Source: Psychrobacter luti
GTDB taxonomy: Bacteria; Pseudomonadota; Gammaproteobacteria; Pseudomonadales; Moraxellaceae
Direction: 5' to 3'
NCBI RefSeq assembly: GCF_014192115.1
Contig: NZ_JACHXL010000003.1
Span: 372,001 to 436,000, forward strand
DNA length: 64,000 bases
Part shown: positions 57,298 through 64,000 of the stretch, in pieces
Layout: the number at the start of each line of letters is the position of its first letter
How positions within the stretch are numbered: position 1 is the first letter of the stretch
Program-made: the position numbers and the translations under genes
The notes under the pieces: generated by a model
Databases searched by the model: none
The model's input: only the letters and a program-made list of their open reading frames with translations
What the model was told of the DNA's origin: nothing

Positions 57298-59109
57298 TTA
57301 AGGCTCAACGATCTGCGTGACCGGCACTTGCTCAACGCTGGTCTCGTTAATAGTCGTCTTCTCTGTGAGTACGCCTACTGCCGCGTCTGTTTTGCCATCA
57401 TTATTGACATCAACGACCGCGGTTGGACTGAAGGTTGTCTTTTCTGTTGGTTGCGCTTGCTTAATCGCTTGCGCTTCTTGTACAGAAGCTACCCGAGCTG
57501 AACTAGCCGCATCAATGGCATCAACCGCTTTTGCTTTATTACTATTGGCAGGTAGATTCACCAATTGCACTAAGTTTTTATGCGGTACAGGAATAACCGT
57601 CGGTACGTCAAGGTTAGCGCCGCCGCCTAAGACTTGATAAAGCTCGACTTGGCTGATGATTTTTTGTAGCTCTAAATCTAAGATACCTTGCTGCGTTGAG
57701 AACAATGAACGCTGCGCATCAAGTACGTCTAAATAGTTTGCAATACCCGCTTTAAAGCGTGCATCTGCAATTTGATACGTCTGTTCAAAGTTATCTTGCA
57801 GACGGTATTGCGCGGCGAGCTGATCGCCCAAAGTCGCACGTGTGGCTAATACATCGGATACTTCGCGGAACGCCGTTTGGATAGACTTCTCGTAACCTGC
57901 TAACGTCTGTTCACGCTCAATTTTCGCCACATCGTAATTGGCATCCAAGCGACCAGCATCAAAGATAGGCACGCTAATACTTGGGCCAAATGACCAACCG
58001 ACCGAACCACTCTTAAACAAGTTATCTAAACTGCCGCTACTCAAACCTACGCTACTGGCTAGGCTGATAGATGGGAAGTAAGACGCGCGCGCCACTTCGA
58101 TATTGGCACCAGCGGCTTTTAGATTGTATTCTGCTTGCAACACATCAGGACGATAACGCAGCAACTCACTCGGCAAGCCTGCACTAAATATCTGCTGGCT
58201 AGTGATGTTGCTGACTGCAGGTGTTGGAATGAGATTGGCTGGAATCGGTCCACCCACCAAAAACTGCAGGGCATTACGTGCTTTTAAAATACTGCTTTGC
58301 GCCCGTAGGACGGCAAGTTTGGCATTTTCTAATGACGCACTTGCTTGCAAAGATGGCAGCTTAGGATCAATACCTGCTTCAAAGCGTTTATCGGCAATAA
58401 ATAGTGATTTCTCACGACTTTCAACCGTGGCCTCTGCCAACTTCAACTGCGCTAAGCTATAGCTTAAGTTGGCATAGCTTTGGGCAATATTACTAATCAG
58501 GCTGATTTGGGTCGAATCTTTCGCCGCTGTAGTGGCCAAGAAATTCTGTAACGCTTGATCTTTTAAGCTGGCGATTTTACCCCAAAAGTCTAATTCATAG
58601 TTGGCCAGACCAAGATTGACGTTATATGAGCTGTTAGGGTTTTTATCAGTTCTATTTTGTGCTGAGCGCGTGTAACCACCACTACCATCAATTCTAGGTA
58701 GGTCATTAAGATCGGTGATTTGATATTGCGCACGTGCTTTTTCAATCGCTAAGCGGGCACTTTCAAAGTCTTTGTTATTCTCTAAACCTAACGCAATCAG
58801 ACCTTTTAGGCGCTCGTCGCTATAGAAATTCTGCCAGCGATGACCAGCGATACTTGGCTGATCGGCGCTGCTGACCGTTTCTTTATCAAACGCACCATAG
58901 GTTTGTTCGATAGGCACATTCGGCTCAGCAAGGACAGGACGCATATCCGCTTTCGGAATGGTATTACAAGCCGCCATGCTTAACGCTAAAGCAGTCAAGC
59001 CGATTAGCCGACCGCCATTTTTGCGCAGTACTGCAAGCGCCGGTTGCGCAGTGGTAGCAATGTTTGCTACCGCTGCTGAGCTTAAGGTAATATTTTTTTG
59101 AGCACTCAT
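57298..59109 (-). CDS. Outer-membrane efflux channel (OprM/AdeK, NodT family) with C-terminal extension
   Basis: 603 residues. A lipobox MAAC follows a hydrophobic segment at about 35-48, after an unusually long n-region. The two OEP repeats (about 100-290 and 310-500) show RYRPDVLQAEYNLKAAGANIEVARASYFPSISL and RFKAGIANYLDVLDAQRSLFSTQQ, typical of NodT factors. The family ends near YQVLGGGA, but here about 100 further residues follow: an Ala/Gln-rich part, then DVNNDGKTDAAVG (near 567-579), like a calcium-binding DxNxDGxxD loop. The ATG overlaps the RND gene stop by 4 bases (ATGA), so the channel is coupled to the pump. Confidence 0.9.
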   Translation of the reverse strand: MSAQKNITLSSAAVANIATTAQPALAVLRKNGGRLIGLTALALSMAACNTIPKADMRPVLAEPNVPIEQTYGAFDKETVSSADQPSIAGHRWQNFYSDERLKGLIALGLENNKDFESARLAIEKARAQYQITDLNDLPRIDGSGGYTRSAQNRTDKNPNSSYNVNLGLANYELDFWGKIASLKDQALQNFLATTAAKDSTQISLISNIAQSYANLSYSLAQLKLAEATVESREKSLFIADKRFEAGIDPKLPSLQASASLENAKLAVLRAQSSILKARNALQFLVGGPIPANLIPTPAVSNITSQQIFSAGLPSELLRYRPDVLQAEYNLKAAGANIEVARASYFPSISLASSVGLSSGSLDNLFKSGSVGWSFGPSISVPIFDAGRLDANYDVAKIEREQTLAGYEKSIQTAFREVSDVLATRATLGDQLAAQYRLQDNFEQTYQIADARFKAGIANYLDVLDAQRSLFSTQQGILDLELQKIISQVELYQVLGGGANLDVPTVIPVPHKNLVQLVNLPANSNKAKAVDAIDAASSARVASVQEAQAIKQAQPTEKTTFSPTAVVDVNNDGKTDAAVGVLTEKTTINETSVEQVPVTQIVEP

Positions 59110-62100
59110 TGTGTATTATCTCCAAGGCTTACAGGCTGATAACTCTCAGAAGGCATTGGGTCAGAAGGCGTTGGGTTCTGCGGACCAGGTGTGCCGTCGC
59201 TGCCATCATCTCTATCGTTTGGTTTGTTGTTCTCGTATTTATGCGGGAACATACTACGAACCCAAATATAGAACATCGGAATAAAGAAGATACCTAAGAA
59301 AGTCGCAGTCACAACACCGCCAACCACACTGGTACCAATGGCGTTTTGACTACCAGAACCAGCACCTGTGGCGATGAATAATGGCACAACACCAAGACCA
59401 AAGGCAAGCGAGGTCATAATAATAGGACGCAGACGCTGACGTGCGGCAGTCATGACGGCCTCTTTTAGGGTATAACCTTCCTCTTGATGGTCCCTTGCAA
59501 ACTCAATAATCAAGATGGCGTTTTTGGCGGAGAGCCCAACCACGGTGAGTAGACCAACTTGCAAGTAAACATCATTGGATAAACCACGCAGCCAAGTGAA
59601 TACCACCGCACCAAGTACCCCAAGCGGAATAACTAATAGTACTGAGAATGGAATTGACCAGCTTTCATACAAAGCAGCAAGACATAAGAATACCACTAAG
59701 ATTGAGATAGCATACAGCATCGGCGCTTGAGCACCTGACTTTTGCTCTTCTAATGATAGACCTGTCCACTCGTAACTGATGCCTTCTGGTAACTGTTCAA
59801 CCATGGCTTCCATGGCCTCCATCGCTTCACCGGTACTAAGACCAGGAGCGGCACTACCTTGGATATTCATTGACGCCAGACTGTTATAGCGCGTGAGACC
59901 CGGTGAACCGGTTTCCCATTTACTACTAGAGAAAGCATCAAATGAGATCATCTCGTTGCTATCGTTACGGACATACCATTTACCGATGTCATCAGGATTG
60001 GTACGACTACTAGGCTCACCTTGTACAAACACACGCTTAACACGACCACGGTCAACGAAGTCATTGATATAACTTGAACCCCATGCGGTTGAGATTACGC
60101 TATTGATATTTGCCAACGACAAACCATAAGCGGCAGCTTGTTCTTGGTTGATATCAATTTTAAGCTGCGGCGCATCTTCTTGTCCGTTTGGACGTACGCC
60201 AGCTACTTTATCGTTTTGAGCGGCCATACCAAGCAACATATTTCGTGCTTCGAGTAGACCTTCGTGTCCGACACTACCTGAATCTTGGAGCATCAAATCA
60301 AAGCCACTAGAGTTACCAAGCCCGCTAATCGCTGGTGGGATGATATTAAAAACAGTTGCTTCGTTGATTTGGGTAAAGAAATAACCTTGTGCACGATCAG
60401 AGACTGCCCGCGCTGTATTTTCTTCACCCTTACGATCTGCCCAATCATTCAGTTTTACGAAGGCAAGACCGACGTTTTGTCCTTGTCCAACAAAACTAAA
60501 GCCTGCAATTGTAAACGCTGAAGCCACATTATCTGGCTCTTGGCTACTATAATAAGCGCTCACTTTATCGAGCACTGCTTGCGTTTCATTCAAAGTCGAG
60601 CCAGCAGGCAGCTGTACTGCGGTAAACATAATGCCCTGATCTTCTTCTGGTAAGAATGAACCAGGAATACGTAAGAATACCACTGCCATAATACCGATAA
60701 TAGCAGCATAGGCAATTAGATATAACCATTTCAAGCGGAAGCTTTTACCGACAAAATTTTCATAAGAGCGACTGGCTTTGGTAAAAGAGCGGTTAAACCA
60801 ACCAAAGAAGCCTTTTTGATTTTCGCTATTGCCTTTTTCATGGCTTTTACTGCGTTTTAGTAACGTCACACAAAGGGCAGGGGTAAAGATAAGTGCGACC
60901 AGTGCTGATAGCACCATACTGGTAATCAAGGTAATGGCGAACTGACGATAAATTACCCCAGTTGAGCCGCCGAAAAATGCCATCGGGACGAATACTGCTG
61001 ATAAGATAAGCGCAATACCTACAACGATTTTACTAATCTCACCCATTGACTGTATCGTAGCGTCTTTGATAGAGATATTTTGGTCTTCTTCCAAAAGCCG
61101 CTCGACGTTTTCTACCACGACAATCGCATCATCGACCAACAGACCGATGGATAGGACCATAGCAAACATGGTTAAGACGTTGATACTAAAGCCTGCAATA
61201 TAAAGTACTGCAAAGGTACCTAATAGAACCACAGGAACGGCAAGGGTTGGAATAATCGTCGCGCGCCAGTTCTGTAAGAAAATGAACATGACGATAAATA
61301 CCAAGACAATCGCTTCGATTAAGGTCATGACCACTTGTTCAATAGACAAGCGTACAAATGGCGTAGTGTCATAAGGAATAACTGACTTTAGACCGATAGG
61401 GAAGTTTGCTTCTAGCTCGGCGACTCGATCACCAACCAATTCGCGCGTTTCAAGTGCGTTCGCACCACTTGCGAGTGAGATGGCAAGACCTGCTGCTTCT
61501 TTACCGTTGAATAAGGCAATCGTACTGTAGTTTTCACTACCAATTTCAACCTTTGCAACATCGCCTAAACGTACTTGCGCGCCTGAAACATCGGTTTTTA
61601 GTAGGATGTTTTTAAATTCGTCAGGCGTTTTTAAATAACTCTGTACGGTGACGGTCGCATTAATAACTTGTTCATCGACATCAGCAGGTGCTTGACCTAA
61701 TTGACCTGCGGATACTTGTGCATTTTGCGCTCGTACCGCATTGACCACATCAGATGGCACTAAGCTATAGCCACGTAAGCGTTCAGGATCTAGCCAAATA
61801 CGCATGGCGTAAGAGGCACCAAACGCTTGGACTTGACCAACGCCTTCAACACGGCTGAGCTGATCGACGACATTAGAGTTGATGTAATCACCGATATCAG
61901 CGGGATCCATACTGCCATCTTCGGAGACAAAGCCAAATACGGCTAAGAAACCTTCAGAGGCTTTATTGACGTTGACGCCTTGACGCTGTACTTGCTCAGG
62001 CAGCGAGCTCATGGCGGCTTGTAATTTGTTCTGTACCTGAACCTGAGCGGTATCAGAATCTGTACCATTTTCAAAGAAAAGCTGTACAGAGGCACTACCG

Positions 62101-62354
62101 TTTGAAGAACTCGACGACTTCATATACATCAAGCCATCAAGCCCTTTCATACGCTGTTCAATAATCTGTACTACTGAGTTTTCAACAGTTTCAGCGTTAG
62201 CACCAGGATAGCTGGCACTGACTGTTACGGTTGGCGGCGCAATTGCCGGATACTGCTCAATCGGCAGGTTGATAACCGATATTATCCCGATGAGCATGAC
62301 TAAAATAGCCATCACCCATGCAAAAATAGGGCGATCAATAAAAAAACGTGACAT
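59106..62354 (-). CDS. RND multidrug efflux transporter, HAE1 family (AcrB/AdeJ-like)
   Basis: 1082 residues, twelve transmembrane helices and two large periplasmic loops. The N-terminus MSRFFIDRPIFAWVMAILVM and FIFLQNWRATIIPTLAVPVVLLG are typical. The proton relay Asp pair is in GLLVDDAIVVVENVERLL, and the conserved late stretch is VGLSAKNAILIIEFARDH (relay Lys). It resembles AdeJ of Acinetobacter, and pumps of this type expel dyes, detergents and antibiotics. A Pro/Asn/Asp-rich tail of 40 residues follows the last helix. It starts 35 bases after the fusion-protein gene with AGGGA upstream. Confidence 0.95.
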   Translation of the reverse strand: MSRFFIDRPIFAWVMAILVMLIGIISVINLPIEQYPAIAPPTVTVSASYPGANAETVENSVVQIIEQRMKGLDGLMYMKSSSSSNGSASVQLFFENGTDSDTAQVQVQNKLQAAMSSLPEQVQRQGVNVNKASEGFLAVFGFVSEDGSMDPADIGDYINSNVVDQLSRVEGVGQVQAFGASYAMRIWLDPERLRGYSLVPSDVVNAVRAQNAQVSAGQLGQAPADVDEQVINATVTVQSYLKTPDEFKNILLKTDVSGAQVRLGDVAKVEIGSENYSTIALFNGKEAAGLAISLASGANALETRELVGDRVAELEANFPIGLKSVIPYDTTPFVRLSIEQVVMTLIEAIVLVFIVMFIFLQNWRATIIPTLAVPVVLLGTFAVLYIAGFSINVLTMFAMVLSIGLLVDDAIVVVENVERLLEEDQNISIKDATIQSMGEISKIVVGIALILSAVFVPMAFFGGSTGVIYRQFAITLITSMVLSALVALIFTPALCVTLLKRSKSHEKGNSENQKGFFGWFNRSFTKASRSYENFVGKSFRLKWLYLIAYAAIIGIMAVVFLRIPGSFLPEEDQGIMFTAVQLPAGSTLNETQAVLDKVSAYYSSQEPDNVASAFTIAGFSFVGQGQNVGLAFVKLNDWADRKGEENTARAVSDRAQGYFFTQINEATVFNIIPPAISGLGNSSGFDLMLQDSGSVGHEGLLEARNMLLGMAAQNDKVAGVRPNGQEDAPQLKIDINQEQAAAYGLSLANINSVISTAWGSSYINDFVDRGRVKRVFVQGEPSSRTNPDDIGKWYVRNDSNEMISFDAFSSSKWETGSPGLTRYNSLASMNIQGSAAPGLSTGEAMEAMEAMVEQLPEGISYEWTGLSLEEQKSGAQAPMLYAISILVVFLCLAALYESWSIPFSVLLVIPLGVLGAVVFTWLRGLSNDVYLQVGLLTVVGLSAKNAILIIEFARDHQEEGYTLKEAVMTAARQRLRPIIMTSLAFGLGVVPLFIATGAGSGSQNAIGTSVVGGVVTATFLGIFFIPMFYIWVRSMFPHKYENNKPNDRDDGSDGTPGPQNPTPSDPMPSESYQPVSLGDNTQ

Positions 62355-62389
62355 AGTAAATCCCTAAGTCTTCCTAGCTTTGAATGGAA

Positions 62390-63733
62390 TTATTTGGCGG
62401 CTGATTTTGCAGCTTGCTGCGGTGTTTTGGCAGCAGGCTCTTTTGCAGCAGGCGCAGGGTTTGGATTTTCTAATGGCTTCGCAATAACCTCTTGTTCAGG
62501 CTTCACTTTTGCTCCGCCGATAACCACTACTTTATCGCCTGCTTGTAGACCGTCTGTAACCACCCATTGTCCTTTATAGGTACCATTAACAGTAACAGGA
62601 CGCACTTGGATTTTATTGTTTTCATCAACGATATAGACTTGCGTCTCACTCTTGGTTGAGCGCATGACTGCACTTTGCGGGACGAGTGCTGCATTGGTAA
62701 TGACGCTTTGAGTTAAGCGCGCACTGACATACATACCGGGTAATAAGATATTGCTTTTATTTGGGAAGACCGCACGTAAGGTCACCGCACCTGTAGATTC
62801 ATCAACTTTTGCTTCAGATAAAGCAAGTTCACCGCGTACGGGATAAGTTGAGCCATCTTCTAACACCAATTCAACCGAGTTCATTCCTGCTTGTGCTTTA
62901 CCTGCAGAGATTTGCTGGCGTAATTTGAGCAGCTCAGACGAAGACTGGCTGATATCGACATAGATAGGGTCTAAGCGTGAGATAGTCACTAAAGGAGTGG
63001 GTTGACCGGCGCTAACCAAAGTGCCAGCAGTTGCGCTAGAGCGATCACTACGACCTGAAAGCGGCGCACGTACGATAGTACGGTTTAAATCTAAAGTGCT
63101 TGCTTGTAAACCTGCCTTGGCGGTTTGGATGCCAGCTTTTGCGCTTTCAATACCGGCTTGTGATTGACCGATAGCAGCATTGGCGCTTTGCACGGCAGCC
63201 TGAGCAGTACGCACAGCAGTTTGTGCTTGGTCATACTGCTGCTTTGAGATGGCATCAATAGCAACCAAACCTTGCAGACGTTGCAAATCATTTTGTGCTT
63301 GTGATAGCGACGCTTGGCGGCTGGCCAAATCCGCTTTTGCATTAGCATTGTTAGCCAATGCCGTCTGATAGTTGGCTTCTGCTTGTGCTATCGCTGCCTG
63401 ACCACTGGTGATAGACGTTGCGTAGTTATCAGTATTGATACGATATAAAGGTTGGTCTTTTTTGACGTTGCTGCCCTCACGGAACAAAACCTCGTCAATA
63501 ATGCCATTAACCTGTGGGCGGACGTCTGCGGTTTGATAAGCCGCGGTACGTCCAGCAAAGGTCTGTACTTGAGGTATGGTGTCTAGAGTGACAGTCTGAA
63601 CGTTGACGACAGCAGGTGGCATTTGCTGCTGTGCGGCTGCGTCACCAGCTGCGTCCTCGTTTTTGTCACAGCCAACCAGTACAGCTCCAGATAGTACAGA
63701 TGCTATTACAAGCGCAAGAGTAGAGTGCTTCAT
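62390..63733 (-). CDS. RND periplasmic adaptor (membrane fusion) lipoprotein, AcrA/AdeI-like
   Basis: 447 residues from the ATG at 63733 (GAGG upstream), giving a signal with lipobox LVGC at Cys near 22; an earlier ATG nine codons up has no ribosome site. The domains are lipoyl/barrel-sandwich (RPQVNGIIDEVLFREGSNVKKDQPLYRI), then a long alpha-hairpin (about 90-200) rich in Gln/Ala repeats, APLSGRSDRSSATAGTLVSAGQ closing the lipoyl domain, and beta-barrel and membrane-proximal domains. The Pro/Ala/Lys-rich tail is longer than usual. First gene of the operon MFP-RND-OMF, likely controlled from the palindromic promoter upstream. Confidence 0.94.
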   Translation of the reverse strand: MKHSTLALVIASVLSGAVLVGCDKNEDAAGDAAAQQQMPPAVVNVQTVTLDTIPQVQTFAGRTAAYQTADVRPQVNGIIDEVLFREGSNVKKDQPLYRINTDNYATSITSGQAAIAQAEANYQTALANNANAKADLASRQASLSQAQNDLQRLQGLVAIDAISKQQYDQAQTAVRTAQAAVQSANAAIGQSQAGIESAKAGIQTAKAGLQASTLDLNRTIVRAPLSGRSDRSSATAGTLVSAGQPTPLVTISRLDPIYVDISQSSSELLKLRQQISAGKAQAGMNSVELVLEDGSTYPVRGELALSEAKVDESTGAVTLRAVFPNKSNILLPGMYVSARLTQSVITNAALVPQSAVMRSTKSETQVYIVDENNKIQVRPVTVNGTYKGQWVVTDGLQAGDKVVVIGGAKVKPEQEVIAKPLENPNPAPAAKEPAAKTPQQAAKSAAK

Positions 63734-63900
63734 CAATGTCCTCGGCAATATAAATATCATATAATAAATAATTACAGTATTAAAAGTTTAGGGGTAAATC
63801 TTAACGTAGTAGATATGAAAAGTAAGATGCATTTACCGTTGCCAATATATTAATCGCTAAACGCGTAACAATCGGATAAGCAGATTTAATTTAATGAATG

Positions 63901-63932
63901 ATTATAAACTATAGGGTATACCCTACAGTCAA
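63901..63932 (-). promoter_or_regulatory. MerR-type promoter of the RND efflux operon
   Basis: On the minus strand TTGACT (-35, 63927-63932) and TATAAT (-10, 63901-63906) are separated by 20 bases, longer than the usual 17. The spacer holds a perfect 14-bp palindrome TAGGGTATACCCTA (63912-63925), extending with one mismatch to 20 bp (CTGTAGGGTATACCCTATAG). A palindrome between over-spaced promoter elements is the known geometry of MerR/SoxR-family activation. The regulator gene is not in the window. The transcript would start about 160 bases before the adaptor gene. Confidence 0.7.
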
Positions 63933-64000
63933 GGTGCAAAAAACCGTTTTTGCGCCTCGTAACTGTCTTCTAGCTCAATAAATGCTTAATAGCCATTGAT

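What the first reader, a model, noticed from the sequence alone, without database searches (positions are those of the whole stretch)
63901..63932. Efflux operon promoter with 20-bp spacer and palindromic operator (MerR/SoxR geometry)
TTGACT and TATAAT are 20 bases apart with a 14-bp perfect palindrome centred slightly towards -35. MerR-family activators act by untwisting just such over-long spacers. RND operons are usually under TetR or two-component control, so a MerR-type switch here would be unusual.
Basis: partly seen in the sequence, partly recalled or inferred. Interest (0 to 1): 0.55.

Follow-up and report, generated by a model that had tools for sequence, protein, structure and literature searches.

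The report
MerR-type switch for an efflux pump
In Psychrobacter bacteria the genes of an RND-type efflux pump sit behind a promoter with an unusually long spacer and a built-in mirror-image site, the hallmark of control by a MerR-type protein; the likely MerR protein is encoded far away and seems to lack the usual sensing part.

Summary
On the minus strand TTGACT (63932-63927) and TATAAT (63906-63901) are 20 bp apart around a perfect 14-bp palindrome, inside a 22-bp dyad (10 of 11 pairs), ahead of an adaptor/RND/channel operon of Psychrobacter. It is conserved: 59 of 61 pump loci of named records (the other two are cut short), 94 of 105 genus genomes, 0 of 243 other Moraxellaceae. Conservation is confined mainly to the promoter core and varies most at the dyad centre. 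The register equals that of E. coli PzntA, and another MerR gene of the genus sits beside a promoter of the same skeleton. No regulator gene is adjacent. The genome has one MerR gene, unlinked; close relatives of it occur in exactly the same 94 of 348 genomes, but the tree makes this one evolutionary event. The predicted protein has a winged helix-turn-helix and a dimerisation helix, but no sensor domain and no conserved metal-cysteine pair. MerR control of RND pumps is known (BrlR, SoxR, GolS). Verdict: new member of a known kind; binding, activation and signal untested.

The parts
63927..63932 (-). -35 hexamer TTGACT
   Evidence: Read; invariant in 48 of 48 flank-diverged copies and in the 94 matches.
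63901..63906 (-). -10 hexamer TATAAT, 20 bp from the -35
   Evidence: Read; 47-48 of 48 at each position; differs in 3 of 94 genomes, G015, G075 and G078.
63908..63929 (-). 22-bp operator dyad ACTnTnGGGTnnnCCCnAnAGT, centre between 63918 and 63919
   Evidence: 10 of 11 pairs complementary here; over 48 copies 410 of 528 cells (0.78) complementary at this centre, at most 0.35 at the 15 other centres tried.
63912..63925 (.). perfect 14-bp palindrome TAGGGTATACCCTA
   Evidence: only copy in the genome.
63886..63895 (-). conserved ATTAAATTTA-like block 6-15 bp after the -10 (here ATTAAATTAA), at or just after the expected start of transcription; role unknown
   Evidence: Top-base frequency 0.73-0.98 in 48 copies.
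62390..63733 (-). periplasmic adaptor (MFP) gene of the pump; start at 63733 preferred by eye (GAGG upstream, lipoprotein-like signal); the ORF tool starts at 63760
   Evidence: NCBIfam TIGR01730, 233 bits; relatives align from MKH.
59106..62354 (-). RND permease gene
   Evidence: NCBIfam TIGR00915, 1612 bits.
57298..59109 (-). outer-membrane channel gene (NodT/AdeK-like)
   Evidence: NCBIfam TIGR01845, 355 bits; AdeK model 493 bits, under its cut-off of 900.

Best explanation
This is a sigma-70 promoter of MerR type driving the adaptor-RND-channel operon. The 20-bp spacer puts -35 and -10 out of phase, so RNA polymerase alone uses it poorly. A MerR-family dimer binds the 22-bp dyad between the hexamers and, in its active form, bends and untwists the spacer so that both hexamers can be engaged. 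The likely regulator is the only MerR protein found in this genome (143 aa, G000:C9:47797-48225), encoded far from the pump. Shown: geometry, conservation, the genomic pairing, MerR family and predicted fold. Inferred: binding, activation by distortion, and the signal. The protein has no conserved metal-cysteine pair and no ligand domain, so it either senses something through its DNA-binding or helix region or works without a ligand.
For: Spacer and dyad in 59 of 61 Psychrobacter pump loci from named records; the other two have only 168 and 178 bp upstream. Motif in 94 of 105 genus genomes (its pattern fixes the 20 bp). Conservation peaks in the promoter core, variation at the dyad centre and at three positions beside the arms. 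Same register as PzntA, 21 of 32 letters identical. Another MerR gene of the genus lies divergently 22-23 bp from a 20-bp-spacer promoter of the same skeleton in 6 of 6 loci; 24-25 of 32 letters identical to this promoter, best of 106 pump windows 26. A single MerR gene in this genome by two Pfam models. Relatives of it (E up to 1e-15) in exactly the same 94 of 348 genomes as the promoter, 0 of 254 others. Its DNA-binding part is the conserved part (mean 0.94 against 0.74 in 90 orthologs); fold matches Tn501 MerR, SoxR, CadR, NmlR, MtaN. The 19-20-bp spacer rule and distortion mechanism: PMC8113463 and PMC9909328 (passages seen).
Against: No binding or expression data. The regulator gene is unlinked. 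The pairing in 94 genomes is one split on the pump tree, so it counts as about one event. No GGGTnnnCCC on the coding strand within 150 bp upstream of 90 MerR orthologs, though many MerR regulators autoregulate (recalled). Many other Psychrobacter genomes have several MerR genes. Nine places carry paralogs of 58-61% identity; no such dyad near the seven looked at. In L135 (Psychrobacter sp. WY6) the site has a changed -10 and lies 1165 bp before the adaptor match, unlike the rest.
Confidence: 0.75

Rival explanations
1. A MerR-type promoter, but the cognate regulator is not this orphan MerR protein (for example a divergent member that the Pfam models miss).
For: Binding is not shown; the pairing is one evolutionary event.
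Against: Only one MerR gene is found in this 99.98% complete genome by PF13411 and PF00376, and its relatives track the promoter in 348 genomes.
Confidence: 0.12
2. The dyad is the operator of an unlinked TetR-type repressor, as AdeN is for AdeIJK in Acinetobacter (recalled); the 20-bp spacer merely lowers promoter strength.
For: The genome has 10 TetR_N genes; TetR operators can be palindromes of this size (recalled).
Against: None is adjacent; none has a dyad-like site within about 1.5 kb (best 4-6 mismatches against shuffled means 4.5-4.8). A repressor gives no reason to keep 20 bp between near-consensus hexamers across the genus, and the register equals PzntA.
Confidence: 0.08
3. The palindrome is a mobile-element target or end sequence that happens to lie in a promoter.
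For: The exact 14-mer also lies 2-3 bp outside repeated element ends in 10 of 13 non-pump loci examined in the genus.
Against: Such an element end is not seen beside the pump sites printed; the dyad varies in sequence but keeps position and register in 94 genomes.
Confidence: 0.02

Closest known systems
ZntR and the zntA promoter of Escherichia coli
   Same: -35 TTGACT, 20-bp spacer, 22-bp dyad starting ACT and ending AGT with its centre 8 bp after -35; 21 of 32 letters identical. That ZntR acts there is recalled.
   Different: The target is an RND operon rather than a P-type ATPase; the candidate regulator lacks a conserved cysteine pair and scores 54 bits against the 143-bit cut-off of NF007069.
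SoxR-MexGHI-OpmD, BrlR-MexAB-OprM/MexEF-OprN (Pseudomonas aeruginosa) and GolS-GesABC/MdsABC (Salmonella)
   Same: RND pump operons under a MerR-family regulator (passages of PMC9909328 and PMC10333786; that GolS is of the MerR family is recalled).
   Different: SoxR carries a [2Fe-2S] cluster and BrlR senses c-di-GMP; GolS responds to gold. The protein here has no recognisable sensor.
HiNmlR and MtaN
   Same: MerR folds without a sensor domain (HiNmlR so named in its PDB title; MtaN as a truncated form, recalled); both match the model.
   Different: Low identity (18-22%) and different targets (recalled).
AdeIJK of Acinetobacter
   Same: Same kind of RND operon; the channel's best-scoring model is AdeK.
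   Different: Under the AdeK cut-off; AdeIJK is under the TetR protein AdeN (recalled; not borne out by the passages, which hit other words); the promoter motif is absent from 243 non-Psychrobacter Moraxellaceae.

Membership tests
MerR-type promoter | -35/-10 spacer of 19-20 bp | tested here: met
   20 bp here and in 58 of 61 gene-anchored loci within 500 bp, 59 of 61 with L135; the 94-genome count used a pattern that fixes 20 bp.
MerR-type promoter | palindromic operator lying within the spacer | tested here: met
   Centre 8 bp after -35; 410 of 528 cells complementary.
MerR-type promoter | bound by a MerR protein that activates by distorting the spacer | not testable with these tools
   Needs EMSA, footprinting and in vitro transcription.
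MerR protein family (candidate regulator) | MerR winged-HTH domain | tested here: met
   PF13411 45 bits, PF09278 42 bits, PF00376 33 bits, all over cut-off.
MerR protein family (candidate regulator) | long dimerisation helix after the HTH domain | tested here: met
   Predicted helix 86-126, mean pLDDT of the model 82; the 50 listed Foldseek matches are MerR-family entries by title. Dimerisation itself not tested.
Metal-sensing MerR (MerR, ZntR, CueR, CadR) | conserved metal-binding cysteines around the dimerisation helix and C-terminal loop (positions recalled) | tested here: not met
   Only C52 (89 of 90) and C137 (73 of 90) recur; the Cys of HCEE in Tn501 MerR aligns with a non-Cys residue; the cut-offs of all 12 NCBIfam models listed are missed.
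Drug-binding MerR (BmrR, BrlR, TipA) | C-terminal ligand-binding domain | tested here: not met
   About 17 residues of low confidence follow the helix; ortholog lengths 126-160 aa.
AdeIJK equivalog | AdeK model over its curated cut-off | tested here: not met
   492.8 bits against 900.

The most novel reading that the evidence does not exclude
An unlinked, sensor-less MerR protein, gained or lost together with its single operator on one branch, is the dedicated activator of this RND pump in most of the genus. It would work without a classical ligand (its level, or a cysteine such as the near-invariant C52, being the switch), making pump expression a property of one stand-alone DNA-untwisting protein.
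Probability: 0.3. Interest if true: 0.6.

Novelty: new member of a known kind. Interest (0 to 1): 0.42.

Why it matters
It names a candidate switch for an RND efflux pump in most of a genus for which my searches found no described regulator (listings only). It also gives a compact regulator-operator pair (as far as the loose motif shows, one pump site per genome, with many natural variants) for studying how MerR proteins recognise and untwist DNA without a sensor domain.

Tried and rejected
Adjacent regulator: the next gene upstream is ispB-like (named by eye), about 650 bp away on the same strand, with no ORF of 80 aa or more between. Second copies: the exact 14-mer and the loose 32-mer occur once in the genome. 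A 16-18-bp-spacer promoter: five weak hits in 751 bp against 4.5 by shuffling, none at the dyad. TetR rival: 10 genes, no dyad nearby. Autoregulation: no GGGTnnnCCC on the coding strand within 150 bp upstream of 90 orthologs. Around merR genes: 14 regions scanned (7 with paralogs, 7 with orthologs), one weak hit with 9 mismatches, in L221. Rfam: no match in 62000-64000. Literature, listings only: 'Psychrobacter, MerR, RND, efflux' 3 papers, none opened; 'Psychrobacter, AdeIJK' 7, with Psychrobacter once in each; 'AdeN, adeI promoter, Acinetobacter' none. Passages were seen of PMC8113463, PMC9909328, PMC10333786 and PMC8277102.

Limits and dropped rows. At the default threshold 99 of 105 genus genomes match the MerR query; 5 of those are weak (E 1.3e-8 to 2.1e-4, other MerR genes) and fall among the 11 without the promoter. 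One of the 11, G062, is only 83% complete. MerR sequences read: 90 of 94 (G047, G052, G057, G099 not fetched). Six orthologs are marked '1 TAA' because the match runs past a stop; as read they are 126-129 aa. The tree used 46 of 94 dyad genomes and 10 of 11 others (G074 has no close adaptor). The label 'DBD 8-76 only' printed is wrong: those identities are over the whole alignment. One search stopped with a script error after part of its output and was replaced.

Full report
What is there. The window is from a Psychrobacter genome: its adaptor protein is 81-97% identical to those of 61 loci whose records are all titled Psychrobacter. The promoter lies on the minus strand at 63932-63901: TTGACT, 20 bp, TATAAT, with a perfect 14-bp palindrome that extends to a 22-bp dyad with 10 of 11 complementary pairs. 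It faces a periplasmic adaptor, an RND permease and an outer-membrane channel. The next gene upstream, beyond the window edge, is ispB-like (by eye), about 650 bp away on the same strand; no ORF of 80 aa or more lies between.

Is it more than chance? Within the window the pieces are only moderately unlikely (0.65 expected for the hexamer pair with one mismatch allowed; 0.17 for the palindrome with two). Conservation is much stronger. Anchored on the pump gene, 58 of 61 Psychrobacter loci show the same ungapped 32-mer with at most 5 mismatches within 500 bp upstream. Of the other three, two have only 168 and 178 bp upstream; L135 (Psychrobacter sp. WY6) has the site, with -10 TATATT, 1165 bp before the adaptor match, which I did not follow up. 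In whole genomes the loose 32-mer is in 94 of 105 of the genus and in 0 of 243 other Moraxellaceae; TATAAT is changed in 3 of the 94 (G015, G075, G078). Among 106 promoter windows, some from the same genomes, 48 representatives share less than 75% of their flanks. In those 48 the -35 is unchanged and the -10 is changed in one copy at each of two positions. The GGGT and CCC arms never change; the variable places are the three bases at the dyad centre and three positions beside the arms. Mean top-base frequency is 0.52 upstream, 0.67 in the first 20 bp downstream and 0.43 beyond.

What kind of site? The dyad's centre is 8 bp after -35 and 12 bp before -10. Scoring complementarity at 16 centres gives 0.78 there and at most 0.35 elsewhere. 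The zntA promoter of E. coli, checked in a genome record next to zntA, has the same spacer length, the same outer ACT...AGT and the same centre. A positive control came from the genus: a loose motif scan found, besides the pump, promoters of the form TTGACTGTGGAGTAATGTCCATAGTTTATAGT with small variants in six genomes. In six of six loci a 121-122-aa MerR gene starts 22-23 bp away and divergent, and an alpha/beta-hydrolase-like gene follows the promoter (Pfam checked in L229 only; in L234 the hydrolase frame is cut short). These promoters share 24-25 of 32 letters with the window's. MerR regulators are described as acting on 19-20-bp spacers by bending and untwisting (PMC8113463, PMC9909328; passages seen).

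Which regulator? This genome (99.98% complete) has one MerR gene by PF13411 and by PF00376, at G000:C9:47797-48225, between an aat-like and a GNAT-like gene (by eye); the diverged copy in G006 has the same neighbours. Over 348 Moraxellaceae its relatives at E up to 1e-15 are found in 94 genomes, the same 94 that hold the promoter; the same 11 genus members lack both. Five of those 11 have weaker matches, to other MerR genes. Ten of the 11 keep a pump adaptor at 52-62% identity, without the dyad in the upstream stretch read. On a tree of 46 dyad-bearing and 10 other adaptors, presence of the dyad is one split (support 100/99). So the match of the two distributions is about one evolutionary event, not 94. 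It still means that the two did not come apart in the genomes examined.

What might it sense? In 90 of the 94 orthologs the DNA-binding part (8-70) is highly conserved (mean 0.94) and the rest less so (0.74). Cysteines recur only at C52 (89 of 90) and C137 (73 of 90). The predicted fold (mean pLDDT 82) is a winged HTH, a helix 86-126 and a short low-confidence tail. It resembles Tn501 MerR, SoxR, CadR, PbrR, MtaN and HiNmlR, the last called 'lacking the sensor domain' in its PDB title. No NCBIfam cut-off for a metal or redox MerR is reached. I therefore do not file it as a metal sensor.

Rivals. A distant TetR repressor is possible but unsupported: 10 TetR genes, none with a dyad-like site nearby beyond shuffled expectation. 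Another MerR-type protein missed by the models is possible. The exact 14-mer in 10 of 13 non-pump loci lies next to repeated element ends.

Novelty. MerR-type control of RND pumps has precedents (BrlR; SoxR and GolS). What is less usual here is the unlinked, apparently sensor-less regulator and its pairing with one operator across most of the genus. I rate it a new member of a known kind.

Noticed in passing
L229 6006-8306, L230-L234: Another MerR gene (121-122 aa) divergent from an alpha/beta-hydrolase-like operon, with its own 20-bp-spacer promoter of nearly the same skeleton as the pump promoter; in L234 the hydrolase frame is cut short near a transposase-like ORF (by eye).
   Followed up: partly
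L004, L005, L006, L010, L011, L016, L018, L019, L020, L022: The exact 14-mer TAGGGTATACCCTA lies 2-3 bp outside a repeated element end (GGAACCA-like, with ATTAAYAGACCAC-like sequence further in); in L011 the element is next to a serine-recombinase-like ORF and a class A beta-lactamase-like ORF (by eye). A target preference or part of the element.
   Followed up: partly
window 63886-63895: A block ATTAAATTTA 6-15 bp after the -10 is conserved in most copies of the pump promoter; function unknown.
   Followed up: no
L171-L175, L178 upstream of the adaptor gene: Six of the ten pump loci without the MerR dyad carry another block with inverted ends ahead of the pump, TTACAAAT...ATTTGTAA, perhaps a different operator or leader.
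   Followed up: no
L135 1804-1835: In Psychrobacter sp. WY6 the dyad promoter has -10 TATATT and lies 1165 bp before the adaptor match, as if something had come between.
   Followed up: no
L214-L216, L222, L224, L227, L228: Paralogs (58-61% identical) of the orphan MerR, with no pump-type dyad in the stretches of 7.5-19 kb scanned.
   Followed up: partly
L003 1440-1475: An inverted repeat GTAAG...CTTAC lies just before the start of the orphan merR gene here and in L024 and L047.
   Followed up: no
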